A stretch of DNA of 64,000 nucleotides from positions 62,001 through 126,000 of the forward strand of contig NZ_CP058559.1 in assembly GCF_014467015.1 (NCBI RefSeq), read 5' to 3'. Position 1 is the stretch's first letter, and each line of letters begins with the position of its first letter. The stretch comes from Alkalicella caledoniensis. Its GTDB lineage: Bacteria > Bacillota > Proteinivoracia > Proteinivoracales > Proteinivoracaceae. Shown one piece after another: positions 11,078-50,619 of the stretch. Made by a program: the position numbers and the translations under genes. The notes under the pieces were generated by a model, which saw only the letters and a program-made list of their open reading frames with translations, made no database searches and was not told the DNA's origin.

Positions 11078-11101
11078 TAAAAAAGGGCTCTATGCCCTTC
11101 T
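11078..11101 (-). terminator. Rho-independent terminator
   Basis: Minus strand: AAGGGC-ATAGA-GCCCTT then TTTT, just after the stop of the 11112-11423 gene. It closes the two-gene unit that starts at 11614. Confidence 0.75.
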
Positions 11102-11111
11102 TTAAGCGTTA

Positions 11112-14945: not shown

Positions 14946-15314
14946 CTACCCCCGTCTTTTTCCTGGACTGTTGCCAAAACCACCATCTTCTTTGGCAGTC
15001 TTCTTTGAATGACAACTTTTACAAAGTGGCTGCCAGTTTCTTTTGTCCCAAAACAGTGTCCCGTCTCCTCCATGGGGTTTAATGTGGTCCACTTCTGTTG
15101 CAGGAGTAATTCTACCAGTTCTTTCGCAGTGAGTACACAGGGGATGCCTTCTTAAGAAATCTTTACTGGCTTTTCTCCACTGATAGGTATAAAGCTTTGA
15201 GCTTTTCTCGTTTTGTTTTCTAGTCATTTCTTTTTTATGTCCTTCGCAGTATCTATCATGGGTTAAGGTTTGACACCCAGGATAGTTACAAATGCTCTTT
15301 GGTTTCCAGGGCAT
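14946..15314 (-). CDS. HNH endonuclease
   Basis: A 122-residue HNH nuclease. Paired cysteines (CNYPGC, CTHC) bind zinc; the nuclease core reads TEVDHIKPHGGDGTLFWDKRNWQPLCKSCHSKKT (the His of DHI, the Asn of NWQ and the His of SCHSKK). Phage HNH proteins act with the terminase in cutting concatemers. Unusually, terminase lies 5 kb away with cargo genes between. The ATG at 15314 is used; an in-frame TTG five codons earlier is part of its ribosome site (GGAGGTGA). Confidence 0.93.
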   Translation of the reverse strand: MPWKPKSICNYPGCQTLTHDRYCEGHKKEMTRKQNEKSSKLYTYQWRKASKDFLRRHPLCTHCERTGRITPATEVDHIKPHGGDGTLFWDKRNWQPLCKSCHSKKTAKEDGGFGNSPGKRRG

Positions 15315-15346
15315 CAAGTTCACCTCCAAATATCATTCTTAAAAAA

Positions 15347-15471
15347 GGTATAGAAAAAGCTCCAGTTCATTAACCAGAGCCTTGATCCAAGAATGCTGCG
15401 TTTCCTAAGATTCGAATCGATATAACGTAGGCGTATGCTACAGCATATGGTGTTCTAGGATTTTCTATACC
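15347..15471 (-). ncRNA. Putative structured RNA closed by an 11-bp stem
   Basis: The segment begins GGTATAGAAAA and ends TTTTCTATACC on either strand, giving a closing stem around ~100 bases that contain further hairpins (TATGCT-GT-AGCATA; GCTC..GTTcattAAC..GAGC; the palindrome GATTCGAATC). No coding frame fits. It lies between the HNH gene and the late regulator. It is not a tRNA although GATTCGAATC resembles a T-loop. Confidence 0.4.
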
Positions 15472-15509
15472 TTTACACCATATACTATAACACACATCCA
15501 TAGTCGCTT

Positions 15510-15938
15510 TCAGTCGCATTTAGTCGCATCTTTTATCTTCTTAACTTCTTTTATCGCCTTCCCATGGATTCGAAATACGGTGCTTCTATCATAGCCCATA
15601 GCCAAAGCAATCTCCTCCCAGTTTTTCCCGCACAGATATCTCATCTCTAACAAGAGCTGATAATTAAGGTCATCAATCTTATTTATGGTTTCTTGAATAT
15701 CTTTTTTTAGTTCCACAAGCCTGTCAATGTCAGCATTGATTTCATGCTCTAAGTCAATGACTTTCACGATGGTATTTTCCATTCTACTTTTTTCAAAGCT
15801 ACCACCAGAGATCTTTTCCTGAGTAAAGCTTGTTGTAACTTTCATTGAAAGACTTTTTAAAGTTGCTAATTGTTCAAGTTTGCTATCTATCATCTGGTCT
15901 AGCCAGATTGCTTGAGATAAATATTCCTTTGCATTCAT
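15510..15938 (-). CDS. ArpU/DUF1492-like late transcription regulator
   Basis: A 142-residue protein: N-terminal coiled coil (LDQMIDSKLEQLATLKSL ... DIDRLVELKKDIQETINKI), then a C-terminal sigma-region-4-like HTH (YLCGKNWEEIALAMGYDRSTVFRIHGKAIKEVKKI). This layout is that of DUF1492/RinA/ArpU proteins that switch on late phage genes. Its location just before the HNH/packaging/late region agrees. It shares its start base with the stop of the upstream gene. Confidence 0.85.
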   Translation of the reverse strand: MNAKEYLSQAIWLDQMIDSKLEQLATLKSLSMKVTTSFTQEKISGGSFEKSRMENTIVKVIDLEHEINADIDRLVELKKDIQETINKIDDLNYQLLLEMRYLCGKNWEEIALAMGYDRSTVFRIHGKAIKEVKKIKDATKCD

Positions 15939-16168
15939 TAGCCCACCTCCACATCATCTAACAAACCCATCTTCCCTCCGTAATAAATCTCCATTATATT
16001 TCTTTGGGTTGCAGGATCAAGAGACTTGATTCTTTTAAATACACGCTCTTGGTCTTCTAATATCTGTGCTTTCGTTTTAAAGAACCCACAACTTGTCCCT
16101 TCACACTTTTTAACTTTTAAAGCCTTACATCTACCGTTTTTATAAGCAAAGCATTCTTTTTCCATCAT
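15938..16168 (-). CDS. Small cysteine-rich phage protein
   Basis: A 76-residue protein, MEKECFAYKNGRCKALKVKKCEGTSCGFFKTKAQILEDQERVFKRIKSLD ... Four or five Cys with spacing like a small zinc knuckle (CFAYKNGRC, CEGTSC). Common in Firmicute phages and mobile elements; function unknown. The starts of both flanking genes overlap its ends, so it is translationally coupled on both sides. Confidence 0.7.
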   Translation of the reverse strand: MMEKECFAYKNGRCKALKVKKCEGTSCGFFKTKAQILEDQERVFKRIKSLDPATQRNIMEIYYGGKMGLLDDVEVG

Positions 16169-16596
16169 CACTTTTCTCCCTCTCTTTCCTTACATTCATT
16201 TGAAAAATATCTAATTGGAATGTTCCATCTTTTAGCTTTCTTTATCTCTACAGCCATGCCAGGTGATACTCTATCTCCAAAGACCCAAACTTCATGGCAT
16301 TTACCAAGTAGCACCAGACCCATATCAATTCCTAGCTGTCTTTCCTTTGGATCTCCTTCCTCGAGGAACTGTGGGTACATAAGATGGGTAATAATTGGTA
16401 CTGCATTTTGAGTAGCTGCAAATCTCCCGTACCTTCTTGCCTTTAGAATGTTCCCTTCTATATCCCCTGCAAAGGGACTGCAGATAAACACGATCTTTTT
16501 CTTCCTCTTAACCTTTTCTTCTTTTTCTATATTTGTAAAGGCTTCATAAACCGTTGGGTCATGATAACCTTCAGCATTAAATTTATTTACACTCAT
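16168..16596 (-). CDS. Nucleoside deoxyribosyltransferase-like (DUF7768-type) protein
   Basis: A 142-residue protein with a Rossmann-like core: KKKIVFICSPFAGDIEGNILKARRYGRFAATQNAVPIITHLMYPQFL ... GIDMGLVLLGKCHEVWVFGDRVSPGMAVEIKKAKRWNIPIRYF. The ICSPF start and GMAVEI...A motif resemble the nucleoside 2-deoxyribosyltransferase superfamily, which would point to nucleotide salvage or base modification, but catalytic function here is not proved. It overlaps the helicase gene by 4 bases. Confidence 0.75.
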   Translation of the reverse strand: MSVNKFNAEGYHDPTVYEAFTNIEKEEKVKRKKKIVFICSPFAGDIEGNILKARRYGRFAATQNAVPIITHLMYPQFLEEGDPKERQLGIDMGLVLLGKCHEVWVFGDRVSPGMAVEIKKAKRWNIPIRYFSNECKEREGEK

Positions 16597-24763: not shown

Positions 24764-25119
24764 TTTAGATCACCCACTTCCTCCATGACCTTCTTATAGT
24801 GAGAAGAGTCTAGTGCCGTAAGTTTCTGCGCCCCATACTTATTTAAGATGGCCTTTACTGCCTCTCTGTGTCCTTCTCGGTTCTTTGCTGCCATTAGAGC
24901 TCTCACCTCTTCAAGACTTGGTGTCTTTTCCTTTGGCTGATTTTCTTCCTTAGTCTCTTGGACGACTTCAGTTTTATCTTCAGTTTGTATAGGTGTCTCT
25001 TTTACATCTGTTTGTGTTGTAGCTGCACTACCTTCGATAGCCTGTACCAAATCTTCTATGCTAGATGCTAGGCTTCTCATATTCTCAACCACCTCAAGGG
25101 CCAGCTTGATCCTACTCAT
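24760..25119 (-). CDS. Phage protein of unknown function
   Basis: A 119-residue protein: helical N-terminus ([28 protein letters not shown]), a Thr/Glu/Lys-rich linker and a folded C-terminus ([51 protein letters not shown]). Such proteins are frequent next to DUF2800 in Firmicute phages; function unknown. Overlaps the MetK gene end by 8 bases and the DUF2800 start by 4. Confidence 0.75.
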
Positions 25120-26332
25120 GGGCTTCTCCTCCCTTCTTCTTAAGATAGTTATCTGTTAGCTTCTTCAGTGTGTTAGCCATATCTAAGGCTTCCCAAGGTG
25201 TGTCTATTTCCTTTTCTCCCAGGATCATCTTGTCTCTGCCAAAGTGACCGTAGGCAGCAAACTGTTTATAGATAGGTCTTTTAAGTCCAAAACTTTTGAT
25301 GATAGTTCCTGGCCTCATATCTATTAAAGTTGAGATCATCACTGTCAGAATTTCATCTGGGAGCTTACCAGTTCTAAAGGTATCAATCTTAAAAGAGACA
25401 GGTTTGGCAACACCAATTGCATAAGATATTTGCACTTCACATTCCTTAGCAAGCCCTGCCGCCACGATGTTCTTTGCGATATATCTGGCGAGATACGCTC
25501 CAGACCTATCCACCTTTGTAGCATCTTTCCCTGAAAAAGCACCACCGCCATGGCGTCCTTTACTGCCATAGGTGTCTACGATAATTTTTCTTCCGGTAAG
25601 CCCTGAGTCTGCTGCCGGACCACCTAAGACAAATCGTCCTGTGGGATTAATAAGGATCTTGGTCTCCCGGTTCATTAGCTCAGAAGGGATGGTCTTTAAG
25701 ATGATCTGACTTAGCACATCATTTCTTAGCTTTTTAATGTCGATCCCTTCTGTATGTTGCGTTGAAACCACGATGGCCTTAATGCAGACCGGCTTATGGT
25801 CTTTGCTGTATCCTACTGAAACCTGAGATTTTCCGTCTGGTTTAAGATAAGGAAGTTCTCCTGTTTTTCTGGCTTCCGTCAGCCTTTTACACATTGTATG
25901 AGCAAGTACAAGGGGAAGAGGTAGCATCTCATCTGTCTCATCCGTTGCATAGCCAAACATCATGCCTTGATCCCCAGCCCCTAGTTCCTTGCTATCCACT
26001 CCCATGGCAATATCCGGTGACTGTTTATTAATAGAAATTAGCATCCTGTAGAACTCACCATCTGTTGATAGCTCGTCTGCTCTATAGCCAATGGCATCGA
26101 TGGTATCCCTAATCACTTTTTTATGGTCCACTCGGGCTTTGGTCCTTGCTTCACCAAAGACATAAATAAATCCATCAGCTACAGTTGTTTCAATGGCCCC
26201 TCTTGAATCAGGATCTTCTTTTAACATCGCATCCAAGATTGCATCTGAAATCTGGTCACAAATCTTATCTGGGTGTCCTTCTGTTACTGATTCTGACGTA
26301 AAGGTATAAGCGGTTTTTAAAATCTCATTCAT
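25112..26332 (-). CDS. metK: S-adenosylmethionine synthetase (phage-encoded)
   Basis: A 406-residue enzyme making AdoMet from Met and ATP. Motifs: [21 protein letters not shown] at the start, [36 protein letters not shown] and [19 protein letters not shown], so all catalytic loops look intact. It lies inside the prophage replication module, overlapping both neighbours, and so is a phage gene rather than the host copy. It may feed the phage methyltransferase at 13385-14647. The frame extends to 26392, but the ATG at 26332 gives the family start [16 protein letters not shown]. Confidence 0.96.
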
Positions 26333-26477
26333 TCGTTTTCTCCTCTCTTTTCTCCGTAGTTTCTTTAGTCTGGTTTTCATCCAGTTCAACAAGCCTACAT
26401 GCTAATCGCTTGGATACAATACTAATGGCAGTTAAAACTCCTACCATTTCTTCTTGAAGTTCTTTCGTTGCATTCAT
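26325..26477 (-). CDS. Small coupled phage protein upstream of metK
   Basis: A 50-residue protein, [50 protein letters not shown], overlapping the metK start by 8 bases. Helical with an acidic tail; no recognised family, though similar short proteins occur in Firmicute phages. The ATG at 26477 has GAGAGGAG upstream; two earlier start codons in frame are weaker. Confidence 0.55.
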
Positions 26478-28683: not shown

Positions 28684-29463
28684 ATGACTAAAGAAAATAT
28701 ATTTAACAAAGAGGAATTTGCAGATTTGCTTGAGAGGGCAAAAGGAGATCGTTCTATTAATCGTTTTGCAGAGGAGACTGGTGTGAGCGCAGCCCACATT
28801 TCAAGATTTTTAAGAAGTTTGATCGAAGCGCCCCCAACACCGGAGACTATTTCAAAGTTTTCTTCAAAAGCCTATAATGATGTTTCTTATAGAGATCTAA
28901 TGGCAGCAGCAGGGCATATTGCAATTACTAAAGAGAATGGATCCATTGGACTAGATGAGTTAGAAGATGACGATAGCGATGAAGTTGATAATAGAAGACC
29001 CTATGTGCCCACTAGAAATGCAAGTATTGATCCTATATCTCCTAATGAAAGAAGAATGGAGATGGAAAATTTAGAGAAGAGACTTTTTCAAGTTATCCTT
29101 TCATATTTATATGAAGCACCTTTTCAATGGAACATGCAAAAGCCTGATTCAAGGATGCGATTCCCTGATATGATTGTTGATATTGACGATGAGAAATATT
29201 CAAGATGGCTATTGGAGTTTAAAGCCTACCCAGAACCTAATAGAGGATTTGGCCTTCCGCCACAACATATATATGGTAGGCTTGCAATGATTGAGTTTTC
29301 TCCAAAGGATAAGTTTACAATAGTGGTAAATAGCGAGAGAGCATTCCAATATTTTTTAAGAAGACCTCCTGTATCAATAAGAGCTAATATTTATGTAATG
29401 CTAGTAGATATTGAAAAAGGTAGAGTTCTTACGGAAGAGCAGCTATCTAGTTACGAAATATAA
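28684..29463 (+). CDS. HTH repressor-like protein with PD-(D/E)XK-like C-terminus
   Basis: A 259-residue protein, the only plus-strand gene of this region. Residues ~5-60 form a lambda-type HTH (EFADLLERAKGDRSINRFAEETGVSAAHISRFLRSL). After an acidic linker, the C-terminal ~140 residues read FPDMIVDIDDEKYSRWLLEFKAYPEPNRGFGLPPQHIYGRLAMIEFSPKDKFTIVVNS, a D-x(n)-ExK arrangement like a PD-(D/E)XK nuclease core instead of the LexA-like peptidase of usual repressors. It likely acts as the prophage or island repressor, binding the palindrome over its own promoter. A GGGAGGTGAT box precedes the start. Nuclease activity is an inference. Confidence 0.7.
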   Translation: MTKENIFNKEEFADLLERAKGDRSINRFAEETGVSAAHISRFLRSLIEAPPTPETISKFSSKAYNDVSYRDLMAAAGHIAITKENGSIGLDELEDDDSDEVDNRRPYVPTRNASIDPISPNERRMEMENLEKRLFQVILSYLYEAPFQWNMQKPDSRMRFPDMIVDIDDEKYSRWLLEFKAYPEPNRGFGLPPQHIYGRLAMIEFSPKDKFTIVVNSERAFQYFLRRPPVSIRANIYVMLVDIEKGRVLTEEQLSSYEI

Positions 29464-29572: not shown

Positions 29573-30568
29573 CTATTCCTCTAACTCTGCCATCTTCTCT
29601 CGGCGCTTCTGATCTAGCGTTTTAGTTTCACCTTTAATAAGGGTCCACTCATAGATATTAACTGCTGACCATCCCGTTACTTTTTCTGCCCAGCTATTAA
29701 ATGTCATAACTTCACCTTGAAATTCTACTGACCTAATATCTTTTACAACTGCATCAGAGTCGTCAAAGTTTTTAATAACAACAGCATCTCCTGCTTTAAG
29801 AAGTCCCCACTCAAACAGCTTATCCATTCTTGGTAGGTAGGTTCTAGTAATACGGGTAGCTCCTTCTGTCATAATCTCGGGAGTCTTCTTCTCACTTATT
29901 TCAACATAGAAATCCTCAAGCAGTTGTGGTGGCAGTAATCTGTTTATCTCCAAAAACAATCCTCCACCAACCTTTAGAGGTTTCAAAGTAAAGCAGCTGA
30001 TATCTACATGATTGGCTATGAGCCAGGCTACAGCCGATTCGGTTTGACGGTCAAATGACGAAGCAATCAAAATGATTCTCTGCTTTTTATTAAAGGTCTT
30101 CATGGCATTGTTCTTTTCCAGGAAGGACTCTAGGATCCTAGTTGCCTTTTCGTGAGGTGTCAAACCACCAAGGTCAAATTCGTGTTCATAACTCTTAACA
30201 TATGGAGCAAATATCTTATCCACCAGTTCTTCAGGTGTCTTAATCTTTGCATAGCCTGCTGCATAACGGATGGCCTGAAACTCTAGCTTTTCTTTTCTGG
30301 CTTTAATATCCTCAGCATCTCGCTTAATTTCTATGAGAACCAGATTTCCATTTTCATCAATAGCAGTAAGATCACTTCTCCCTTTTTCACTATTGGTCAC
30401 CTGGCTTCCAATAATTAATAGAGACTCGTCAGTTAAAAGAAGTTCGATGTTAGTCCTGATGAATTCTTCGATATGTGATTCCTTAAGGTTTAAAGATTTA
30501 AAGCTGGTCTCAGTGATGTCCATTTCGTCTACAGTTATATTAGCGTCCGTCTTAATTGGTATGATCAT
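29573..30568 (-). CDS. NucS/DUF91-like PD-(D/E)XK nuclease with C-terminal RAMA-like domain
   Basis: A 331-residue protein. Residues ~25-170 match the DUF91/NucS C-terminal nuclease fold: LKESHIEEFIRTNIELL ... QVTNSEKGRSDLTAIDENGNLVLIEIKRDA, showing catalytic D and ExK. Residues ~235-320 (LPRMDKLFEWGLLKAGDAVVIKNFDDSDAVVKDIRSVEFQGEVMTFNSWAEKVTGWSAVNIYEWTLI) resemble the RAMA domain, proposed to read modified bases. This pairing suggests restriction of modified DNA. The ATG at 30568 uses AAGGAGG; a GTG at 30580 overlaps that box. Last gene of a minus-strand operon. Confidence 0.75.
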   Translation of the reverse strand: MIIPIKTDANITVDEMDITETSFKSLNLKESHIEEFIRTNIELLLTDESLLIIGSQVTNSEKGRSDLTAIDENGNLVLIEIKRDAEDIKARKEKLEFQAIRYAAGYAKIKTPEELVDKIFAPYVKSYEHEFDLGGLTPHEKATRILESFLEKNNAMKTFNKKQRIILIASSFDRQTESAVAWLIANHVDISCFTLKPLKVGGGLFLEINRLLPPQLLEDFYVEISEKKTPEIMTEGATRITRTYLPRMDKLFEWGLLKAGDAVVIKNFDDSDAVVKDIRSVEFQGEVMTFNSWAEKVTGWSAVNIYEWTLIKGETKTLDQKRREKMAELEE

Positions 30569-30605
30569 TGTTGGCGGCACCTCCTTTATTCAATCATAAA
30601 TAAAA

Positions 30606-31742
30606 TCACTTAATTCCATACTCTTTCTTAAATCGTCTCTCTGCTTTATTATAAAGCTTTTGAAGGCCTTCTTCATCTTTTTGTATTTCCATGAGAACAA
30701 TTTCAACACATTCATCTTCAGTAAATACACTGAATGGCAGCTTAAACTTACATATCTCTTCATATAATTTTCTTTTCAGATCTTCATCGGATAAGCCTTT
30801 CTTTTCTTGATAATCAGCAACTCTGCTAATTATACCAGGAGCCATTGTTATTATTGAACTATCATATGGAAAGTAGCTATCTGCGTAAATATCCATGAAT
30901 TGCATACTGAAGCCATTTGATAATCCACTTAAATCATAACGGATAACCTCTGATAAAAGAGAAAAAGCATTGTCTAGCTTACTTTCTTCCTTTACAAACT
31001 CTGACATAGTAAATCGAGAATTTCTATATAACCCGAAGTCCCCATTTTTAGCATGAATCATGCTTCTCTCATTTAAGTATCCCCAAATGACATCTCTATA
31101 TGGGTATTCTGGTTTTTCTTGAACTTTTTTACTTAAAGACCAAATATCTAGATCTTCAATTCCAGTTCGGTGGATATATGGGATGTATTCTTCTTTGTTT
31201 AGAACATCTTTCCCTTCATCTGTTAATTCATATGTGAACTTTGTAAAGGCTGCCTTTAATTTTTCTTCTGGAACTTCATCTAGCAGACGCTCCACTAGTT
31301 CTGATTTTTTCCCAGAAACTTTTAAATCATTAGCTTTTAATATATCTTTAAGTACGGTAGCAGTCTCTTTTTCTATAGCTGATCTCAGTGATCCAATCTG
31401 AAGAAAACCTCTATCTAGTAATGATTGCAATAGTTTATCAACATCTTTAATTCCGTACTTATACCACCAAAACCCAGGATAAGAATTCCCTTCAACATAA
31501 TATTTTGGAGCATAAGATAAAAGAAGCGTTTCATGAGGATATAAACCAGCACTGTTTGGCTTCATGCCTTTAATTCTCTTTTCAACAGGAATGACTTCCG
31601 GCTCTGAGGGGGTATTTACAACCTCTGTTTTAACACTAATTGTCGGTTTAATGTTAATTCCAATATTGTCGGTATTTTTCTTTTTATTTATTTCTTCTAC
31701 TTTCTTATCTTTTTTCTTTTTAAATAAATCAAATAATCCCAC
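30606..31742 (-). CDS. SAP-domain protein of unknown function
   Basis: A 378-residue protein. A Lys-rich start (MGLFDLFKKKKDKK) and linker are followed by LYPHETLLLSYAPKYYVEGNSYPGFWWYKYGI and a SAP-type DNA-binding helix pair (ATVLKDILKANDLKVSGKKSELVERLLDEV, residues ~140-170). The remaining ~200 residues are helical and unrecognised. It precedes the NucS-RAMA gene by 37 bases in the same operon, which argues for a shared DNA-related task. GTG start with GGAGGGAT upstream. Confidence 0.7.
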   Translation of the reverse strand: MGLFDLFKKKKDKKVEEINKKKNTDNIGINIKPTISVKTEVVNTPSEPEVIPVEKRIKGMKPNSAGLYPHETLLLSYAPKYYVEGNSYPGFWWYKYGIKDVDKLLQSLLDRGFLQIGSLRSAIEKETATVLKDILKANDLKVSGKKSELVERLLDEVPEEKLKAAFTKFTYELTDEGKDVLNKEEYIPYIHRTGIEDLDIWSLSKKVQEKPEYPYRDVIWGYLNERSMIHAKNGDFGLYRNSRFTMSEFVKEESKLDNAFSLLSEVIRYDLSGLSNGFSMQFMDIYADSYFPYDSSIITMAPGIISRVADYQEKKGLSDEDLKRKLYEEICKFKLPFSVFTEDECVEIVLMEIQKDEEGLQKLYNKAERRFKKEYGIK

Positions 31743-31770
31743 TACAATCCCTCCATTCTATGATTTCAAC

Positions 31771-32397
31771 CTACTCATCTTCTCCTCTATGCTCCACCGC
31801 CATCTGATCAACCCAGTCCTCTTCTACATACACCATCCCGTTCCGACCTTCTACCTTACGATTAGGACCCGCCTTATAAAGTTTACAATTTAGCGGACCA
31901 TAACAGAATGTCTCAAACCTATACTTCTTCCGGCTTCTAGGATTCCAGTTATCTACAATAATCTCAACAGGCATCCTAGCTCCCCACATACAGCTGCTGC
32001 ACTTAGTGTCATAAGTCCTAGCTGCAAGTCTGCGGTGTCCTCTTTCTCTATAGACTTCCAGCTCTGGTGGCACCAGTTCCCATGGGGATGAATTGCTACC
32101 TTGTTCTCCTGTAGAGATTACTTTCAGCTTTGAGACTTTATAATATTCAACTGGCTCCATATCAGGGTCCGGTACTGGTACACACTCTCCGCTGATGATA
32201 TCATTTACTTTGAATTGATGTTTTACGTGGGCTGCTTTACCTATGCCGATGGAAAAGATAGTTTCTTCACCATCCAGTTCCCCCTCTAACTTAATGGCAT
32301 AGCCTAGGTATGTATGGGAGGCTTCATCGAAGGACCTGGTTAGACGGATCCTGGGCTGAATTGATATGATGGTTCCTGTGAAAGTTGATTTATTCAT
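31771..32397 (-). CDS. Putative OB-fold/zinc protein
   Basis: A 208-residue protein. The first ~95 residues look like an OB-type beta barrel (FTGTIISIQPRIRLTRSFDEASHTYLGYAIKLEG ... FKVNDIISGECVPVPD). The rest has four cysteines in CSSCMWGA ... FCYGPLNCKLYK, a possible zinc site, and a W-rich end. No family recognised. It lies 28 bases upstream of the SAP-domain gene and is probably co-transcribed. Strong AAGGAGG box. Confidence 0.65.
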   Translation of the reverse strand: MNKSTFTGTIISIQPRIRLTRSFDEASHTYLGYAIKLEGELDGEETIFSIGIGKAAHVKHQFKVNDIISGECVPVPDPDMEPVEYYKVSKLKVISTGEQGSNSSPWELVPPELEVYRERGHRRLAARTYDTKCSSCMWGARMPVEIIVDNWNPRSRKKYRFETFCYGPLNCKLYKAGPNRKVEGRNGMVYVEEDWVDQMAVEHRGEDE

Positions 32398-32424
32398 ATT
32401 GGTTGCAGGCCTCCTTATAAATTC

Positions 32425-33120
32425 TTAATCCACCTTTTCTTTATCTATAGTTCGGATTAGTAAATCTCCAACTGATGAGCATTTATATTTTTGTTTTCCC
32501 TTTTTATCAATCTCTATTTCCAAGAGACCGTAACTGAGGAGATTATTTAAATAAATTCTTTTAGCAACTTCATCATCTATAGCTTCACGTGTCATTCCTC
32601 CATGAATAACAGGCTGTAGAATATCAATTCCAGTAATTTTTTGATATTCTTTAAATCGAACTAAGTTCCATTTTAGTAAATAGTAGAATCTCAAATATAC
32701 AATTTCAATATCGGTAACTCTATTAAGAAGATTCAACAGTCCTTCAGCTTTATAAACTTGTAGATCAGATTGCTGCAATCCATAGACAAAAATGTTCTTG
32801 ATATATTGAATTCTTTCATCAGAAGAAGCGTCAGCACTACCAACACATGCTTTATAAAAAAGTGAAGAGTACTTTTCCTCTTAGACCTTTTCCTCAAATG
32901 ATTTTATTTCGACTTTTAACCCATCTATCTCTTTACCAAGAAATTCAACAAAACGGACTACTCTATCCATTCGTTGATTAGGAATAACAATACCTAGCAA
33001 CTCTTGTGCGGCTGGTCCTACAATGGGTATTGCTCCAAAAGTGCTTTTTAGGAGACTTGTTGTATAATCCCTAGAATTGTTCTGCAGATCTAGTGAGTTT
33101 TTATTATCATTACGGCTCAT
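32425..33120 (-). pseudogene. Gene split by an in-frame TAA stop
   Basis: Two pieces share one frame: 32881-33120 (MSRNDNKNSLDLQNNSRDYTTSLLKSTFGAIPIVGPAAQELLGIVIPNQRMDRVVRFVEFLGKEI..) and, after TAA at 32881-32883, an open continuation (EEKYSSLFYKACVGSADASSDERIQYIKNIFVYGL ... LLNLLNRVTDIEIVYLRFYYLLK) to 32425. Together they give ~230 residues like a family of membrane-proximal helical proteins with the 'ipivG..l.ell....PnqR.dR...f' start and 'SdeR..yi..l..nGl' middle. A single substitution explains the stop. Heads the possible defence operon. A downstream TTG could allow a C-terminal fragment. Confidence 0.65.
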
Positions 33121-33213
33121 AATTATTCCCCCCATCTCCAAAATATTCCGAAAACTCCACCTAAAAACAAAACGGACACAGTTGCTTATTTATCTATGCC
33201 CGTTCTAGGGTAT

Positions 33214-33923
33214 CTACTTGTCATGACAGCAAGCCACTTCTCTAACTGCGCCAACTTCCTTCTCAACTACTCTTACTAGATACTCCAAAAACTCATCTTT
33301 TAAGTCTTCTCTTCTGAGAGCAGTCTCCACAGTGGCTTCAAGAAATCCTTGCTTATTCCCTACATCGTATCTTTTACCTACGAAGTCATATGCGTACATA
33401 TCTTCTTGAAGTGCCAGCTCTTTTAAAGCATCCGTCAGCTGAATCTCTCCACCTTTGCCAGGCTTCGTCTCAGCTAAAATATCAAAGATACCGGGATTGA
33501 TGATATATCGTCCAAGGATTGCAACATTGGATGGCGCTTCATCTACTGCAGGCTTCTCAACTAGCCCCTTCACGGTATAGACTCTATCACTTACTCTTTC
33601 ACCATCAACGATTCCATATTTACACACGTCTTCATCTTTAACGGTTTGAACTCCAAGTACAGAAGTCTTATACTCATCATAAACTTCTATCATCTGCTTA
33701 AGGCAAGGCTTGCCCTCATTATATACAACATCATCACCAAGCATAACGGCAAATGGTTCATTCCCTACAAAGGTCTTTGCACAGTAGATGGCATGTCCTA
33801 ATCCTTTGGCTTCTTTTTGTCTTATGTAGTGGATATCGACAAGATCAGTAATGTCTCTAACCACTTTCAGTAGTTCTTCATTGGCTTTTTTCTCAAGTTC
33901 CAGTTCCAATTCAACATTTCTAT
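33214..33923 (-). pseudogene. galU: galU 3' exon (UTP-glucose-1-phosphate uridylyltransferase)
   Basis: This exon starts AT AGA AAT GTT GAA, completing GAT (Asp) with the last G of the 5' exon to give EDHF-D-RNVELELELEKKANEELL, the normal GalU sequence. It carries LGHAIYCAKTFVGNEPFAVMLGDDVVY and the C-terminal half of the enzyme. With the 5' exon (49330-49531) the joined gene is 912 bases, 303 residues, normal for the family. The two exons now lie 15.4 kb apart because of the group II intron and elements inside it, so functional GalU is unlikely unless splicing still works. Confidence 0.92.
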
Positions 33924-34021
33924 ATAGCAATAGGTAAGACTTTGATATTATCTCCATCTTTTCCCCTGCTCCACACCGTACGTGAGAGTTTCCCCTCATA
34001 CGGCGCTCCATCTTATTCTTT
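33924..34021 (-). ncRNA. Group II intron domains V and VI
   Basis: After the maturase stop the minus strand reads GAGCGCCGTATGAGG-GGAAAC-TCTCACGTACGGTGTG, a domain V-type hairpin with a GNRA-like loop, then the domain VI stem with AGGGGAAAAG... and the 3' end GCTAT. Positions fit domain order. Confidence 0.85.
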
Positions 34022-38230: not shown

Positions 38231-39250
38231 TCAGCGGTTGAATGTTTTTAGCCACTGTTTTAAATCAGTATTGTTATCCCATTGTGCTTTTTCCGGTGGA
38301 ACAATCTCCTTGCTAGCAGCTTCAATAGCTTCACGCTTTCTGCTTACTTCTGCTTTTGCGTAAACTTCCGTAGTTTTAACACTGACATGACCTAGTAAAT
38401 CCCGTATGTAAATTAGGTCAACCCCAGAATCAACGAGTCCCATAGCCGTTGTATGTCTCATTTTGTGAGGACTAAAATCCGCTGGAATTATCTCCGAATT
38501 AATTTCTCTAGCACGTTTCGCATATTTACCGACAAGGTAATTTATACCCTGTCTAGTTAATTGGCTTTTCATATGGTTCTTAAACAACCATTCACTAAGT
38601 TTTTCTTGCCTATCATATCCTTCTTGTACTAAATATTGGTGGATGAAAGGAATGATATCCTTCATAAGTGGTACATAGCGGCTTTTATGCCCTTTACCGC
38701 GAAGTAAAAGCGTGTATGGTTCATAAAGGGATAAATCTTTTACCCGGATACTTATGAGTTCGCTGACACGCATGCCTGTAGTATAGAGAAGGGACAACAT
38801 GACATAATCTCGCAACCCTCCAGAAGAAGCGACATCTATCTGAGACATCATTAATTTTACCCCATCTGTTTTCATGTAGGATATTTCTTTCTGCGGTGCT
38901 TTTTTTATCGGAATCCCTACGATTCGTTGATAATTATCTAGACACTCAGGAAATTCATACATTAGAAACCTTACAAAACTATTGATTGCTGCCTGCCTCT
39001 GGTTCCTTGTTGATATACTGTTTAGACGTTGTTTCTGAAGCCATTCCAGGAATAGAAGTACGTTCTTATACGAAAGGTCAGACATCTGTACTCTGTTTGC
39101 AGAAATATTAAGTTCTTCCTGCAAGCACGTCAAGAAAAGTATAAAAGTGTATCTGTAAGAATCAATTGTTAATGGTGTCATACCCTTAACATTTGGAAGG
39201 TAAACGGTAAAATATTTGTTAAGGTACATTGCAAAATCAGTGGATTTCAT
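38231..39250 (-). CDS. RIT tyrosine recombinase 3 (copy 1)
   Basis: A 339-residue tyrosine recombinase: SAM-like N-domain and catalytic domain with TTGMRVSELISI (first Arg), SPHKMRHTTAMGLV (HxxR), LGHVSVKTTEVYAKAE (His and nucleophile Tyr), all in place. Its start overlaps the end of recombinase 2 (ATG at 39250 within the frame to 39237). Third gene of the trio; its stop lies ~58 bases from the element's inverted repeat. The encoded protein is identical to that of copy 2. Confidence 0.95.
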   Translation of the reverse strand: MKSTDFAMYLNKYFTVYLPNVKGMTPLTIDSYRYTFILFLTCLQEELNISANRVQMSDLSYKNVLLFLEWLQKQRLNSISTRNQRQAAINSFVRFLMYEFPECLDNYQRIVGIPIKKAPQKEISYMKTDGVKLMMSQIDVASSGGLRDYVMLSLLYTTGMRVSELISIRVKDLSLYEPYTLLLRGKGHKSRYVPLMKDIIPFIHQYLVQEGYDRQEKLSEWLFKNHMKSQLTRQGINYLVGKYAKRAREINSEIIPADFSPHKMRHTTAMGLVDSGVDLIYIRDLLGHVSVKTTEVYAKAEVSRKREAIEAASKEIVPPEKAQWDNNTDLKQWLKTFNR

Positions 39251-40211
39251 GTTTGTCCACCTCGCCGAACACCTTATTTACTTTGTCTTTAAAACGATCC
39301 TCAATATACGGATACAGACTCATTGTCAGTCGAACATATCTCTCAGTAGCATATATTGTTTTGTGGCCGAGATAACTGGATAGAATGGGGAGCGCTACGT
39401 ACATATCTAGGCCAGAATCAACCATTTGCTTAAATGATTGCACAGAAAAAGTATGACGCCAGTCGTGCAGTCTTGGACCTCTTCCTCCACCAATATACGG
39501 AATTCTTGCTTTTTGAAGGAAAAGCCTATGACGTTCATAAAGAGCCTCACCATCTAATCGGCTTCCATTAGACTTGGTAAATATATAGTCTTTTTCATCT
39601 AAAAGGTAAAAACATTTTTGTGCATACTGACACATAAGACCGGCCATCTCTTCGTTTAACACGATATAACGCTCATTATTGTTCTTTGTTTCAAATAGCT
39701 TAATGATTCCATCCTCAAGGTCCACATCCTGTTTTCTGATACCAAGCGTTTCGTTAATTCTAGTTCCACAGCAGTAGAGTAATCGGAAAAGGATTGGTAG
39801 TTGAATGCTGTCCTTACGATTACGTGCAGATTCATATGTATCAACTGCATGAAAATATCTTGCTATCTCATCTTCCGCATAAATATATGGTTGGAAATCT
39901 GTTTGCTTGAAACATACATCTCTTGTCACAAAGATTTCATATCCTTTACGACAGAGATAGATCAGAAATTGCTTAATTCCATTGATTCGAGAATAATGGG
40001 TGGTACTAGCTTCGTTTTCTTTCCGTTGAATCCATTTCATTGCATGTTGACTATTGAATACTGGCTGAAGTATTTCATTTTCAGTACAAAATCGGTCAAA
40101 CAGCCGTAAATGCTTGCAAAAACTTACTTCTTTATGACCCGTTGCTACCATATGGTCTAAATAATGATACATTTCCTCAGAAAAAATAGATTTAAACATT
40201 GGTCTACTCAT
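39237..40211 (-). CDS. RIT tyrosine recombinase 2 (copy 1)
   Basis: A 324-residue recombinase with CCGTRINETLGI, RLHDWRHTFSVQ and LGHKTIYATERYVRL, so R-H-R-H-Y is complete. The N-terminal half (LDHMVATGHKEVSFCKHLRLFDRFC) is a core-binding helix bundle. Overlaps recombinase 1 by 8 bases and recombinase 3 by 14, so the three are translated together. Protein identical in copy 2. Confidence 0.95.
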   Translation of the reverse strand: MSRPMFKSIFSEEMYHYLDHMVATGHKEVSFCKHLRLFDRFCTENEILQPVFNSQHAMKWIQRKENEASTTHYSRINGIKQFLIYLCRKGYEIFVTRDVCFKQTDFQPYIYAEDEIARYFHAVDTYESARNRKDSIQLPILFRLLYCCGTRINETLGIRKQDVDLEDGIIKLFETKNNNERYIVLNEEMAGLMCQYAQKCFYLLDEKDYIFTKSNGSRLDGEALYERHRLFLQKARIPYIGGGRGPRLHDWRHTFSVQSFKQMVDSGLDMYVALPILSSYLGHKTIYATERYVRLTMSLYPYIEDRFKDKVNKVFGEVDKHEIH

Positions 40212-41457
40212 GCTTACACCTCCCTGCCATGTAATGTTTTGAAGATATTATTGGCAAGGAAAGTGGGCATAATCGTAACTTTTCGATATCTACTTTCAGA
40301 TATATCTTGGTTGTTTCAGTATTCTGGTGTCCAAGCACGGAACTGATTATGGGCATAGATACATTCTTTTTTAGCATGTTTGTAGCTAGGCTGTGGCGTA
40401 GAGAATGTGGACCGTGTTTCTTGTTTTTCCAGTTCTTTATGTTTGCCTTACGCATGTACTTCGTTACAATAGAATGTATCGTCGGTGTTGAAAGTGGCCG
40501 ACCCCTTTTTGATGATTCTGTGGAAACGATGATTTCCTGTACATCTGTTGACGGCCTACCGTGCTTCAAATAGTCAATAATGGCATTACCAATTGAAGAT
40601 AGTAGAGGATATTCTACTGCCATATCAGTTTTATGTTGGTTGAAACAAACGATATTTTTCTCCCAGTCTATTTGGTTAAACTGAAAGTTCACAATATCAT
40701 TTGATCGCCATCCATATTCAGCGGCAAGGAGCAAAATCAAATAATCCCTTTTCCCAGTGGCAGAGGTTCGCTCAACTGAGGAAATGATTGTGCGAATTTC
40801 GTCTTCTTCGTAAGTTGTGGGGAGCTTACAGTTATGGTTGTAATTATCTTTTAAAATTAACAACGAACTGTCTGATTTGGAAATTCCATTTTCATATGCA
40901 TATCTAAAATAAATGCGTAGCGCTGAACCGCAGTTGTGCCTAGATGCGAGTGAATATTTCATAGAACTAAAAAAATCCTCCATTGTTTCAACAGAAAGAT
41001 TATTCAATTTAAGCGATTTTTTTTCTAGATAACAGAAGAAATCATATAAATACTGTTCCTTATTTTTGAGTGTACTCTCAGAAAGATTTTTTTCACTTCT
41101 AAGGTAGGATAGATACAATAACATTTCATTGCCTATATCTCCATAAAAAACTCTCTCAATTCGTGGCGTACGGAATTCAAAATCACCATCCTTTTGATAA
41201 GAAGAGAGCATACGGACTGCACGTAAACGTAGCTTTTTACCGTTCGCTAGACCCTTGACAGAAATATGGGTCCCTAAAGTCTCATCTAAGTATTGGAAAC
41301 CAATAGACTCGGTAAAATCCTTAAACTTGTTTAAAGTCATCCATTTTGTAAGATTCCCCCACTCCGCTAGGATACTTCGCTGATATGAAGCATTATACTG
41401 CCGAATGTTCAACTCATCTTCACACAAAGTAATCAATGTCTTAAAATCTGTTATCAT
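40204..41457 (-). CDS. RIT tyrosine recombinase 1 (copy 1)
   Basis: A 417-residue recombinase, the longest and first of the trio: EYGWRSNDIVNFQ (Arg), HGPHSLRHSLATNML (HxxR) and LGHQNTETTKIYLK (His, Tyr). A GGAGGG box lies before the ATG. The ~110 bases between the start and the element end contain extra TTATGTAAAG motifs that may bind the recombinases. Protein identical in copy 2. Confidence 0.95.
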   Translation of the reverse strand: MITDFKTLITLCEDELNIRQYNASYQRSILAEWGNLTKWMTLNKFKDFTESIGFQYLDETLGTHISVKGLANGKKLRLRAVRMLSSYQKDGDFEFRTPRIERVFYGDIGNEMLLYLSYLRSEKNLSESTLKNKEQYLYDFFCYLEKKSLKLNNLSVETMEDFFSSMKYSLASRHNCGSALRIYFRYAYENGISKSDSSLLILKDNYNHNCKLPTTYEEDEIRTIISSVERTSATGKRDYLILLLAAEYGWRSNDIVNFQFNQIDWEKNIVCFNQHKTDMAVEYPLLSSIGNAIIDYLKHGRPSTDVQEIIVSTESSKRGRPLSTPTIHSIVTKYMRKANIKNWKNKKHGPHSLRHSLATNMLKKNVSMPIISSVLGHQNTETTKIYLKVDIEKLRLCPLSLPIISSKHYMAGRCKHE

Positions 41458-44088: not shown

Positions 44089-45342
44089 ATGATAACAGAT
44101 TTTAAGACATTGATTACTTTGTGTGAAGATGAGTTGAACATTCGGCAGTATAATGCTTCATATCAGCGAAGTATCCTAGCGGAGTGGGGGAATCTTACAA
44201 AATGGATGACTTTAAACAAGTTTAAGGATTTTACCGAGTCTATTGGTTTCCAATACTTAGATGAGACTTTAGGGACCCATATTTCTGTCAAGGGTCTAGC
44301 GAACGGTAAAAAGCTACGTTTACGTGCAGTCCGTATGCTCTCTTCTTATCAAAAGGATGGTGATTTTGAATTCCGTACGCCACGAATTGAGAGAGTTTTT
44401 TATGGAGATATAGGCAATGAAATGTTATTGTATCTATCCTACCTTAGAAGTGAAAAAAATCTTTCTGAGAGTACACTCAAAAATAAGGAACAGTATTTAT
44501 ATGATTTCTTCTGTTATCTAGAAAAAAAATCGCTTAAATTGAATAATCTTTCTGTTGAAACAATGGAGGATTTTTTTAGTTCTATGAAATATTCACTCGC
44601 ATCTAGGCACAACTGCGGTTCAGCGCTACGCATTTATTTTAGATATGCATATGAAAATGGAATTTCCAAATCAGACAGTTCGTTGTTAATTTTAAAAGAT
44701 AATTACAACCATAACTGTAAGCTCCCCACAACTTACGAAGAAGACGAAATTCGCACAATCATTTCCTCAGTTGAGCGAACCTCTGCCACTGGGAAAAGGG
44801 ATTATTTGATTTTGCTCCTTGCCGCTGAATATGGATGGCGATCAAATGATATTGTGAACTTTCAGTTTAACCAAATAGACTGGGAGAAAAATATCGTTTG
44901 TTTCAACCAACATAAAACTGATATGGCAGTAGAATATCCTCTACTATCTTCAATTGGTAATGCCATTATTGACTATTTGAAGCACGGTAGGCCGTCAACA
45001 GATGTACAGGAAATCATCGTTTCCACAGAATCATCAAAAAGGGGTCGGCCACTTTCAACACCGACGATACATTCTATTGTAACGAAGTACATGCGTAAGG
45101 CAAACATAAAGAACTGGAAAAACAAGAAACACGGTCCACATTCTCTACGCCACAGCCTAGCTACAAACATGCTAAAAAAGAATGTATCTATGCCCATAAT
45201 CAGTTCCGTGCTTGGACACCAGAATACTGAAACAACCAAGATATATCTGAAAGTAGATATCGAAAAGTTACGATTATGCCCACTTTCCTTGCCAATAATA
45301 TCTTCAAAACATTACATGGCAGGGAGGTGTAAGCATGAGTAG
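44089..45342 (+). CDS. RIT tyrosine recombinase 1 (copy 2)
   Basis: 417 residues, same protein as 40204-41457 with no difference. Catalytic residues in EYGWRSND, HSLRHSLA and LGHQNTETTKIYLK. GGAGGG precedes the ATG. The identity of both copies implies very recent duplication or gene conversion. Confidence 0.95.
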   Translation: MITDFKTLITLCEDELNIRQYNASYQRSILAEWGNLTKWMTLNKFKDFTESIGFQYLDETLGTHISVKGLANGKKLRLRAVRMLSSYQKDGDFEFRTPRIERVFYGDIGNEMLLYLSYLRSEKNLSESTLKNKEQYLYDFFCYLEKKSLKLNNLSVETMEDFFSSMKYSLASRHNCGSALRIYFRYAYENGISKSDSSLLILKDNYNHNCKLPTTYEEDEIRTIISSVERTSATGKRDYLILLLAAEYGWRSNDIVNFQFNQIDWEKNIVCFNQHKTDMAVEYPLLSSIGNAIIDYLKHGRPSTDVQEIIVSTESSKRGRPLSTPTIHSIVTKYMRKANIKNWKNKKHGPHSLRHSLATNMLKKNVSMPIISSVLGHQNTETTKIYLKVDIEKLRLCPLSLPIISSKHYMAGRCKHE

Positions 45343-46309
45343 ACCAATGTTTAAATCTATTTTTTCTGAGGAAATGTATCATTATTTAGACCATATGGTA
45401 GCAACGGGTCATAAAGAAGTAAGTTTTTGCAAGCATTTACGGCTGTTTGACCGATTTTGTACTGAAAATGAAATACTTCAGCCAGTATTCAATAGTCAAC
45501 ATGCAATGAAATGGATTCAACGGAAAGAAAACGAAGCTAGTACCACCCATTATTCTCGAATCAATGGAATTAAGCAATTTCTGATCTATCTCTGTCGTAA
45601 AGGATATGAAATCTTTGTGACAAGAGATGTATGTTTCAAGCAAACAGATTTCCAACCATATATTTATGCGGAAGATGAGATAGCAAGATATTTTCATGCA
45701 GTTGATACATATGAATCTGCACGTAATCGTAAGGACAGCATTCAACTACCAATCCTTTTCCGATTACTCTACTGCTGTGGAACTAGAATTAACGAAACGC
45801 TTGGTATCAGAAAACAGGATGTGGACCTTGAGGATGGAATCATTAAGCTATTTGAAACAAAGAACAATAATGAGCGTTATATCGTGTTAAACGAAGAGAT
45901 GGCCGGTCTTATGTGTCAGTATGCACAAAAATGTTTTTACCTTTTAGATGAAAAAGACTATATATTTACCAAGTCTAATGGAAGCCGATTAGATGGTGAG
46001 GCTCTTTATGAACGTCATAGGCTTTTCCTTCAAAAAGCAAGAATTCCGTATATTGGTGGAGGAAGAGGTCCAAGACTGCACGACTGGCGTCATACTTTTT
46101 CTGTGCAATCATTTAAGCAAATGGTTGATTCTGGCCTAGATATGTACGTAGCGCTCCCCATTCTATCCAGTTATCTCGGCCACAAAACAATATATGCTAC
46201 TGAGAGATATGTTCGACTGACAATGAGTCTGTATCCGTATATTGAGGATCGTTTTAAAGACAAAGTAAATAAGGTGTTCGGCGAGGTGGACAAACATGAA
46301 ATCCACTGA
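45335..46309 (+). CDS. RIT tyrosine recombinase 2 (copy 2)
   Basis: 324 residues, identical to the copy at 39237-40211. Arg in CCGTRINE, HxxR-like in HDWRHTF, Tyr in ATERYVRL. Overlaps recombinase 1 by 8 bases; AGGGAGGTG box upstream. Confidence 0.95.
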   Translation: MSRPMFKSIFSEEMYHYLDHMVATGHKEVSFCKHLRLFDRFCTENEILQPVFNSQHAMKWIQRKENEASTTHYSRINGIKQFLIYLCRKGYEIFVTRDVCFKQTDFQPYIYAEDEIARYFHAVDTYESARNRKDSIQLPILFRLLYCCGTRINETLGIRKQDVDLEDGIIKLFETKNNNERYIVLNEEMAGLMCQYAQKCFYLLDEKDYIFTKSNGSRLDGEALYERHRLFLQKARIPYIGGGRGPRLHDWRHTFSVQSFKQMVDSGLDMYVALPILSSYLGHKTIYATERYVRLTMSLYPYIEDRFKDKVNKVFGEVDKHEIH

Positions 46310-47315
46310 TTTTGCAATGTACCTTAACAAATATTTTACCGTTTACCTTCCAAATGTTAAGGGTATGACACCATTAACAATTGATTCTTACAGATACACT
46401 TTTATACTTTTCTTGACGTGCTTGCAGGAAGAACTTAATATTTCTGCAAACAGAGTACAGATGTCTGACCTTTCGTATAAGAACGTACTTCTATTCCTGG
46501 AATGGCTTCAGAAACAACGTCTAAACAGTATATCAACAAGGAACCAGAGGCAGGCAGCAATCAATAGTTTTGTAAGGTTTCTAATGTATGAATTTCCTGA
46601 GTGTCTAGATAATTATCAACGAATCGTAGGGATTCCGATAAAAAAAGCACCGCAGAAAGAAATATCCTACATGAAAACAGATGGGGTAAAATTAATGATG
46701 TCTCAGATAGATGTCGCTTCTTCTGGAGGGTTGCGAGATTATGTCATGTTGTCCCTTCTCTATACTACAGGCATGCGTGTCAGCGAACTCATAAGTATCC
46801 GGGTAAAAGATTTATCCCTTTATGAACCATACACGCTTTTACTTCGCGGTAAAGGGCATAAAAGCCGCTATGTACCACTTATGAAGGATATCATTCCTTT
46901 CATCCACCAATATTTAGTACAAGAAGGATATGATAGGCAAGAAAAACTTAGTGAATGGTTGTTTAAGAACCATATGAAAAGCCAATTAACTAGACAGGGT
47001 ATAAATTACCTTGTCGGTAAATATGCGAAACGTGCTAGAGAAATTAATTCGGAGATAATTCCAGCGGATTTTAGTCCTCACAAAATGAGACATACAACGG
47101 CTATGGGACTCGTTGATTCTGGGGTTGACCTAATTTACATACGGGATTTACTAGGTCATGTCAGTGTTAAAACTACGGAAGTTTACGCAAAAGCAGAAGT
47201 AAGCAGAAAGCGTGAAGCTATTGAAGCTGCTAGCAAGGAGATTGTTCCACCGGAAAAAGCACAATGGGATAACAATACTGATTTAAAACAGTGGCTAAAA
47301 ACATTCAACCGCTGA
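46296..47315 (+). CDS. RIT tyrosine recombinase 3 (copy 2)
   Basis: 339 residues, identical to the copy at 38231-39250, with Arg in TTGMRVSEL, HxxR in HKMRHTTA and Tyr in TTEVYAKAE. Here its 3' end, not the 5' end of gene 1, faces the palindromic attachment side. Confidence 0.95.
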   Translation: MKSTDFAMYLNKYFTVYLPNVKGMTPLTIDSYRYTFILFLTCLQEELNISANRVQMSDLSYKNVLLFLEWLQKQRLNSISTRNQRQAAINSFVRFLMYEFPECLDNYQRIVGIPIKKAPQKEISYMKTDGVKLMMSQIDVASSGGLRDYVMLSLLYTTGMRVSELISIRVKDLSLYEPYTLLLRGKGHKSRYVPLMKDIIPFIHQYLVQEGYDRQEKLSEWLFKNHMKSQLTRQGINYLVGKYAKRAREINSEIIPADFSPHKMRHTTAMGLVDSGVDLIYIRDLLGHVSVKTTEVYAKAEVSRKREAIEAASKEIVPPEKAQWDNNTDLKQWLKTFNR

Positions 47316-49626: not shown

Positions 49627-50619
49627 TTATCTATTGTTCTGTTCAAATCTCCAAGCATCTCTAACCATACCTTCTATAGTAAGTTCTGCCTTCCACTCAA
49701 GTTCTCTCTCTGCTTTACTTGCATCAGCATAGCATATAGCAATATCCCCAGAACGTCTACCTACTATCTCATATGGAACGTCAATCTCGTTTACCTTCAT
49801 AAAAGCATTAACAAGTTCCAGTACAGAAGTTCCTCTGCCTGTGCCCAAGTTAAATATATTTATACCTTTATCTAAGTTTTCAATGGCCTTTACATGTCCC
49901 TTTGCTAAATCAACTACATGGATATAGTCACGAACTCCAGTGCCATCTATTGTATCATAGTCATTTCCAAAAACGCTTAACTTCTCCAATTGTCCTTTTG
50001 CTACCTTGGTCACGAAAGGCATAAGATTATTAGGAATACCACTAGGATCTTCCCCTATCAATCCACTCTCATGGGCACCTACTGGGTTGAAATAACGAAG
50101 TAAAGAAACAGAAAAGTTATTGTTAGCCTTCGCCGTATCTGTTAAGATCCGCTCGCTCATAGCCTTCGTTTCACCATATGGATTGGTAGTCTTCTTAAGC
50201 TCCATTTCTTCCTTAAGTGGAGAAGGCTGATCACCATATACGGTTGCAGATGAACTGAATACAAACTTTCCAACTCCATACTTTACACACATTTTGCTAA
50301 GCACCATTGTAGAAACCAAGTTATTGTAGTAATACTCTAGTGGCTTGGAAACAGACTCACCTACGGCCTTAAGACCAGCGAAGTGAATCACACCATCAAT
50401 TTCATGATTATTGAAGATTTCCTCTAACTTTACTTCATCCGTCACATCAATTTGATAGAAAATCGGTTTAATGTCTGTTATTGTAGATAGCTTGTCCAAC
50501 ACCTCTATTTTTGAGTTACAAAGGTTATCCGCTATGAGTACAGTATGGTTATTTTTAATTAGTTCTATTGTTGTATGGCTGCCGATAAAGCCTAGGCCTC
50601 CGGTTACTAATATGTTCAT
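49627..50619 (-). CDS. galE: UDP-glucose 4-epimerase
   Basis: A 330-residue short-chain dehydrogenase-type epimerase: NAD-binding TGGLGFIGSHT, FSSSATVYGDQP (catalytic Ser region), YGETKAMSE (Tyr-x3-Lys) and the SLLRYFNPVGAHESGLIGEDP substrate loop. Interconverts UDP-glucose and UDP-galactose for polysaccharide building. A strong AGGAGGTGA box; 20 bases after the flippase stop. Confidence 0.96.
   Translation of the reverse strand: MNILVTGGLGFIGSHTTIELIKNNHTVLIADNLCNSKIEVLDKLSTITDIKPIFYQIDVTDEVKLEEIFNNHEIDGVIHFAGLKAVGESVSKPLEYYYNNLVSTMVLSKMCVKYGVGKFVFSSSATVYGDQPSPLKEEMELKKTTNPYGETKAMSERILTDTAKANNNFSVSLLRYFNPVGAHESGLIGEDPSGIPNNLMPFVTKVAKGQLEKLSVFGNDYDTIDGTGVRDYIHVVDLAKGHVKAIENLDKGINIFNLGTGRGTSVLELVNAFMKVNEIDVPYEIVGRRSGDIAICYADASKAERELEWKAELTIEGMVRDAWRFEQNNR

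What the first reader, a model, noticed from the sequence alone, without database searches (positions are those of the whole stretch)
29573..33120. Possible undescribed defence operon: NucS-RAMA nuclease, SAP protein, OB/zinc protein
A four-gene minus-strand operon with short gaps encodes DNA-related domains: a DUF91/NucS-like nuclease fused to a RAMA-like domain (thought to read modified bases), a SAP-domain protein, a possible OB/zinc protein and a broken helical gene. I know of no described system with this set. Its place beside a prophage repressor region fits a phage- or island-borne anti-phage cargo against modified DNA.
Basis: partly seen in the sequence, partly recalled or inferred. 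Interest (0 to 1): 0.75.

Follow-up and report, generated by a model that had tools for sequence, protein, structure and literature searches.

The report
Prophage-end defence cargo with RAMA-tailed nuclease
The four genes are real, but they are not one new immune system: they look like a chance collection of separately travelling anti-phage cargo genes at the end of a prophage, among them a probable methylation-sensing DNA-cutting enzyme and a widespread, completely uncharacterised gene whose surroundings are repeatedly swapped.

Summary
Observation confirmed. Minus strand: NUC (29573-30568), SAP (30606-31742), OBZ (31771-32397), and an Abi-like gene (32425-33141) broken by one in-frame TAG. 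The domain guesses hold. In Foldseek, NUC's nuclease half matches EndoMS/NucS and its C-terminus matches the CcrM adenine methylase (84 columns, 2.5 A). SAP passes Pfam's cut-off. OBZ models as an OB fold plus a four-Cys domain (pLDDT 91.5).

Interpretation partly supported. The set recurs nowhere searched: in 398 genomes of the phylum OBZ occurs in 20, SAP in 8 and NUC in 27, and no second locus holds all three. Each gene travels alone in defence or prophage contexts. NUC-RAMA relatives sit beside type I R-M, BREX, CRISPR or other (candidate) defence genes in 11 of 13 loci; the other two are prophages. NUC's nuclease half is PADLOC candidate PDC-S11. The cluster lies between an exopolysaccharide locus and a prophage encoding its own adenine-methylase-like protein and SAM synthetase. 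I read NUC as a solo accessory restriction nuclease that senses adenine methylation (inferred).

Most novel part: OBZ has no Pfam hit, 311 relatives across many phyla, and is a recombination junction. In two isolates it flanks a near-identical QatABCD cassette while itself diverged (dS 0.63 versus 0.003).

The parts
29573..30568 (-). NUC: NucS/EndoMS-type PD-(D/E)XK nuclease with a RAMA-like C-terminal domain (331 aa from the ATG at 30568; the first-reader ORF starts at the GTG at 30580)
   Evidence: (PDC-S11 E 1.8e-41)
30323..30373 (-). NUC catalytic motif: D70, E84 and K86 of the 335-aa ORF
   Evidence: invariant across relatives
29576..29833 (-). NUC RAMA-like domain (residues about 250-335)
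   Evidence: AlphaFold2 pLDDT mostly 75-94 here; Foldseek match to CcrM 6pbd_A, 84 columns, 2.5 A; weak PADLOC PDC-S57 hit E 1.3e-4; Pfam RAMA model gave no hit
30606..31742 (-). SAP-domain protein, 378 aa, C-terminal half of unknown fold
   Evidence: Pfam SAP E 1.2e-7 at residues 127-155; phrog_10777 E 5.5e-11; relatives
31771..32397 (-). OBZ: OB-fold plus four-Cys protein, 208 aa, mobile uncharacterised family
   Evidence: no family hit; 311 relatives; model pLDDT 91.5; OB-fold matches
32425..33141 (-). Abi_alpha-like gene interrupted by one in-frame TAG at 32881-32883 (two ORFs, 32425-32778 and 32881-33141)
   Evidence: single open frame apart from the TAG; Abi_alpha E 0.0018 for the C-terminal ORF, below Pfam's cut-off
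28684..29463 (+). HTH protein (prophage regulator side), convergent with NUC
   Evidence: HTH_3 E 3.4e-4, below cut-off; phrog_18248 transcriptional regulator E 4.4e-7
33214..34011 (-). galU-like nucleotidyltransferase, 3' part (border of the exopolysaccharide locus)
   Evidence: PF00483 E 3.8e-23, profile positions 60-241 of 245
25112..26392 (-). metK in the prophage (SAM synthetase)
   Evidence: sequence; homologues in prophages that carry NUC: L185, L186, L188, L190
13385..14671 (-). ParB-like plus N6-adenine methylase-like protein (DPPY motif) of the prophage
   Evidence: sequence; homologues beside NUC in L185, L186, L188, L190

Best explanation
The cluster is variable cargo, not a system. 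It occupies the end of a prophage, between the phage regulator/early genes and the neighbouring exopolysaccharide (galU/galE) locus, a place that in related genomes holds QatABCD, Thoeris, an Mrr nuclease or other genes. NUC-RAMA most likely works alone as an accessory restriction nuclease: the RAMA-like domain senses adenine-methylation status and the NucS-type domain cuts. Self DNA is told apart by N6-adenine methylases nearby (HsdM or the BREX methylase in relatives; the prophage's own methylase plus MetK here). Shown: domains, intact catalytic motif, recurrent neighbourhoods, prophage-end location. Inferred: cleavage, methylation sensing and its sign, protection from phage. SAP is likely a DNA-binding cargo protein and OBZ a probable ssDNA-binding mobile passenger; the Abi-like gene is probably dead.
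For: Set does not recur. NUC-RAMA relatives are beside type I R-M (L084, L089, L185-L187, remnant in L098), BREX pglZ-brxL (L085), CRISPR (L088), PLD-helicase/ZacA (L087), PDC-M26A (L086) or PDC-S06 (L188), or in prophages (L189, L190). Fold matches EndoMS/NucS and CcrM. Same prophage type with different cargo at the same end in L101, L115, L142, L102. Three serine recombinases at the far end of the element. Auxiliary PD-(D/E)XK nucleases at BREX loci are described in PMC12839542.
Against: No hsd or BREX genes near NUC in the window itself. Foldseek E-values are modest (0.004-0.03) and Pfam's RAMA model does not fire. 6mA reading by RAMA domains is not settled (PMC11037411). Attachment sites were not found, so cargo could lie just outside the prophage. 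The neighbourhood enrichment was not tested against a matched control.
Confidence: 0.6

Rival explanations
1. A genuine co-functional defence operon: NUC cuts, SAP recruits or translocates on DNA, OBZ handles single strands, Abi is a back-up; rare or lineage-specific, hence unseen elsewhere.
For: Co-directional genes with 25-28 bp gaps; pairs recur: SAP with OBZ in L114, SAP with a NUC fragment in L084.
Against: Full set absent from 398 phylum genomes and 86 OBZ loci; each gene has many unrelated partners; gene order differs in L114; one member is broken.
Confidence: 0.12
2. A type IV-like system in which NUC attacks adenine-methylated incoming DNA, such as phages or plasmids coming from R-M hosts.
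For: RAMA-like domain by fold; RAMA-endonuclease fusions are proposed 6mA readers (PMC11037411).
Against: Relatives sit inside loci that themselves methylate adenine in the host genome (type I R-M, BREX), where a cutter of 6mA DNA would be suicidal unless site-selective; the prophage here also encodes an adenine-methylase-like protein.
Confidence: 0.2
3. NUC is a NucS/EndoMS-type mismatch-repair nuclease, not defence.
For: Closest solved folds are EndoMS/NucS.
Against: NucS equivalog model scores 20.4 bits against a cut-off of 216; neighbourhoods are defence loci, not repair.
Confidence: 0.06

Closest known systems
PADLOC PDC-S11 (single-gene phage-defence candidate)
   Same: Nuclease half of NUC matches the models over residues 21-248
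   Different: C-terminus differs: RAMA-like here; relatives with the longer tail look DUF4268-like by eye
NucS/EndoMS mismatch endonuclease
   Same: PD-(D/E)XK fold and motif
   Different: Far below the NucS equivalog cut-off; RAMA-like tail instead of the NucS arrangement; mobile defence contexts
RAMA-fusion endonucleases (RAMA-Mrr, GIY-YIG-RAMA; PMC11037411)
   Same: Nuclease joined to a RAMA-like domain
   Different: Different nuclease class (NucS type); no such fusion is named in that paper's passages
Auxiliary PD-(D/E)XK effectors of BREX loci (PMC12839542)
   Same: A 59% identical NUC homologue lies directly after pglZ-brxL in L085
   Different: The window copy has no BREX genes nearby and lies at a prophage end
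Single-strand DNA-binding proteins (SSB, PriB, Rim1), compared with OBZ
   Same: N-terminal OB fold
   Different: Extra four-Cys C-terminal domain; no sequence match; mobile single-gene distribution

Membership tests
PADLOC PDC-S11 | Match to the family's profile models | tested here: met
   E 1.8e-41, residues 21-233; partial, since the C-terminal third is outside the match
PD-(D/E)XK nuclease superfamily | Conserved acidic/lysine catalytic motif in a restriction-endonuclease fold | tested here: met
   Invariant D70, E84, K86; EndoMS/NucS fold matches
NucS/EndoMS | Passes the NucS equivalog model | tested here: not met
   NF003270 20.4 bits against cut-off 216
Shedu (SduA) | Passes the SduA_C (PF14082) cut-off | tested here: not met
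   18.3 bits against 27
RAMA domain | Passes the Pfam RAMA model | tested here: not met
   No RAMA hit at E up to 1
RAMA domain | Same fold as a known RAMA-bearing protein (CcrM C-terminal domain) | tested here: met
   6pbd_A, 84 columns, 2.5 A, prob 1.00, E 0.018; that the CcrM domain is RAMA is own knowledge
Type IV (modification-dependent) restriction enzymes | Cuts only modified DNA | not testable with these tools
   needs biochemistry
Type I R-M or BREX accessory nuclease | Encoded within such a locus | tested here: not met
   No hsd, pglX, pglZ or brxL gene seen near the window copy; met in relatives L084, L085, L089, L185-L187
Multi-gene defence system (NUC-SAP-OBZ) | Gene set recurs as a unit in independent genomes | tested here: not met
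Abi_alpha (PF14337) | Passes Pfam cut-off | tested here: not met
   18.7 bits (C-terminal ORF) and 17.4 bits (read through with X) against 29
SAP domain (PF02037) | Passes Pfam cut-off | tested here: met
   31.6 bits against 23.9
Integron gene cassette (considered for OBZ) | attC site and IntI integrase | not tested
   No dedicated attC or IntI search; the only hint is an integron-cassette-protein domain upstream of OBZ in L114

The most novel reading that the evidence does not exclude
OBZ is an unrecognised cassette hinge: a widespread OB-fold/four-Cys gene whose own sequence serves as the recombination anchor through which defence modules (Qat, Thoeris, Mrr, prophage ends) are exchanged between distant bacteria, possibly helped by the protein's single-strand binding. 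Each cargo unit arrives joined to an OBZ copy, leaving direct-repeat OBZ remnants around it.
Probability: 0.15. Interest if true: 0.8.

Novelty: new variant of a known kind. Interest (0 to 1): 0.45.

Why it matters
A NucS-type nuclease with a CcrM-like RAMA tail that keeps company with type I R-M and BREX would be a concrete test of whether RAMA domains read adenine methylation, a disputed point. OBZ is a strongly conserved family without a name that sits at the break points of recently swapped defence modules. It could help explain how such modules move between distant species.

Tried and rejected
(1) A conserved operon: rejected by neighbourhood searches. (2) OBZ as a defence-system subunit: its immediate neighbours are almost all different families, many metabolic. 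A PADLOC comparison of near and far genes gave no per-gene counts, so no enrichment is claimed. (3) OBZ as an operon specialist: 83% of neighbouring pairs co-oriented against 76% in control pairs, p 0.07, not significant. (4) A defined mobile unit with fixed OBZ ends: homology between copies mostly ends within tens of bases of the gene, but at 80-85% identity ordinary intergenic drift gives the same picture; only near-identical pairs are informative. (5) Attachment sites by direct repeat across the prophage: only galU paralogue similarity (84%) found. (6) DNA or protein relatives of the cluster in plasmids and phages: none for the DNA in plasmids or for OBZ in either; one weak SAP hit in each; NUC's nuclease half only at low identity. 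(7) Solved structures by sequence: no meaningful match.

Full report
WHAT IS THERE. The minus-strand string is real: an Abi-like gene interrupted by one in-frame TAG (32881-32883), OBZ (31771-32397), SAP (30606-31742) and NUC (29573-30568), with 25-28 bp gaps between the last four reading frames and AGGAGG-type sites. Downstream, a convergent HTH gene (28684-29463, +) borders the prophage early genes; upstream lie a galU 3' part and a group II intron RT.

DOMAINS. NUC: PADLOC PDC-S11 at E 1.8e-41 over the nuclease half; Pfam NucS_C, SduA_C and other PD-(D/E)XK models only below cut-off. R68, D70, E84, K86 and Q102 are invariant. The model (mean pLDDT 73.9; C-terminal block mostly 75-94) matches EndoMS/NucS in the first half and CcrM in the second (84 columns, 2.5 A, 19% identity, prob 1.00, E 0.018). 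That the CcrM C-terminal domain is a RAMA domain is my own knowledge. Divergent relatives share the nuclease half but carry a longer, different C-terminus (DUF4268-like by eye): one core with exchanged tails. SAP is a bona fide SAP-domain protein. OBZ folds confidently (pLDDT 91.5) as an OB barrel resembling SSB/PriB/Rim1 (E 0.01-0.1) plus a domain with three invariant and one near-invariant Cys, the pattern of a zinc site (inferred).

IS IT A SYSTEM? Among 398 genomes sampled across the phylum, OBZ relatives occur in 20, SAP in 8, NUC in 27. Their neighbourhoods never repeat the set. Of 80 GTDB and 6 viral-contig OBZ loci with up to 10 kb flanks, one carries SAP (L114, 74% identical) and none NUC. 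L084 has SAP and a NUC fragment about 8 kb apart around a type I R-M locus.

WHERE EACH PART LIVES. NUC-RAMA: 13 other loci were read. Beside type I R-M: L084, L089, L185, L186, L187, and an hsdR remnant in L098. Beside BREX pglZ-brxL: L085. Beside CRISPR cas6b/cas8b: L088. Beside PLD-helicase and ZacA: L087. Beside PDC-M26A: L086. Beside a PDC-S06 AAA protein: L188. In prophages: L189 (split by an inserted gene, same exo378 prophage type as the window) and L190. In L185, L186, L188 and L190 the prophage also encodes homologues of the window's ParB/adenine-methylase-like protein and MetK. In enterobacterial-type relatives with the other tail, NUC lies between hsdS and hsdR and overlaps the hsdR start (L194). 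Auxiliary PD-(D/E)XK effectors at BREX loci were recently catalogued (PMC12839542). Hence NUC is best read as a solo, portable accessory restriction nuclease tied to adenine-methylation systems. SAP relatives occur beside a KAP-ATPase/QatA-like string and serine recombinases (L093, L094; recognised from sequence).

PROPHAGE-END CARGO SITE. In Anaerotalea alkaliphila (L101) the order is galE, Mrr nuclease, an unknown gene, OBZ, then the same prophage (sig 82%, antirepressor 74%, metK 76%, exo378 85%). L115 has Thoeris (SIR2-STALD and ThsB), OBZ, XRE, ImmA, prophage. L142 has sugar-nucleotide genes, OBZ, XRE, ImmA, prophage. L102 has OBZ, QatABCD, a 238-aa gene, then an XRE-like start. The window has Abi, OBZ, SAP, NUC in the same place, between galU and the prophage. 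The far end of the window's element carries three large serine recombinases and another galU/galE pair. I did not find att sites.

OBZ AS A JUNCTION GENE. OBZ has 311 relatives in GTDB contigs; the 80 kept come from many phyla, including Tn3-family transposons in Chloroflexi (L149, L158). Pairs of loci often share sequence on one side of OBZ only. Between two isolates, Streptohalobacillus salinus (L102) and Petrocella (L103), QatA is 99.9% identical (dS 0.003) while OBZ 27 bp away has dS 0.63 and the gene after Qat is 87% identical; the far side of OBZ is unrelated. Between L110 and L115 both flanks are 98-100% identical but OBZ dS is 0.43; these are metagenome assemblies, so chimerism is possible. 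dN/dS is about 0.1, so this is replacement by recombination rather than adaptive divergence (inference). Partial OBZ remnants flank cargo as direct repeats in eight loci, all in the same orientation as the full copy (a further fragment); since about 76% of neighbouring genes are co-oriented anyway, this is only suggestive.

VERDICT. The 'undescribed defence operon' does not. What remains is a prophage-end cargo site, a RAMA-tailed NucS-type accessory nuclease (new variant of a known kind), and an unnamed mobile OB-fold family worth its own study.

Noticed in passing
L102:10654-15308 and L103:10654-15308: QatABCD cassette nearly identical (QatA 99.9% nt) between a Bacilli isolate (Streptohalobacillus) and a Clostridia isolate (Petrocella), flanked on both sides by diverged homologous genes: very recent cross-class transfer.
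   Followed up: partly
L115:6513-8456: Thoeris-like pair (SIR2-STALD plus ThsB TIR) just upstream of OBZ at the end of the same kind of prophage.
   Followed up: partly
L149, L151, L158, L162: OBZ next to a Tn3-family transposase and a tyrosine recombinase in Chloroflexi contigs: another vehicle for the gene.
   Followed up: partly
L114:8276-9118: Gene with an integron-cassette-protein domain (PF21648) between SAP and OBZ, outside any recognised integron.
   Followed up: no
window 38231-41457 and 44089-47315: The same three tyrosine-recombinase ORFs occur twice, in opposite orientations, with identical lengths and apparently identical proteins (tri-recombinase transposon-like).
   Followed up: no
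window 28684-29463: The HTH protein has a C-terminal region with a D..EFK pattern that may be a PD-(D/E)XK-like domain fused to a repressor-type HTH (by eye).
   Followed up: no
L220 about 15000-16500 (about 24 kb before the window) and window 33214-34011, 49627-50619: galU parts and galE genes occur on both sides of the prophage, suggesting a duplicated polysaccharide locus or a repeated integration target.
   Followed up: partly
L219 about 4400-11600 (window minus 15.6 to minus 8.4 kb): Three large serine recombinase ORFs at the far end of the prophage.
   Followed up: no
L084:12649-12888, L089:8331-8570, L187:5714-5956: A PC4-like small protein lies between type I R-M genes and NUC in three loci, and a similar gene precedes OBZ in L031.
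   Followed up: no
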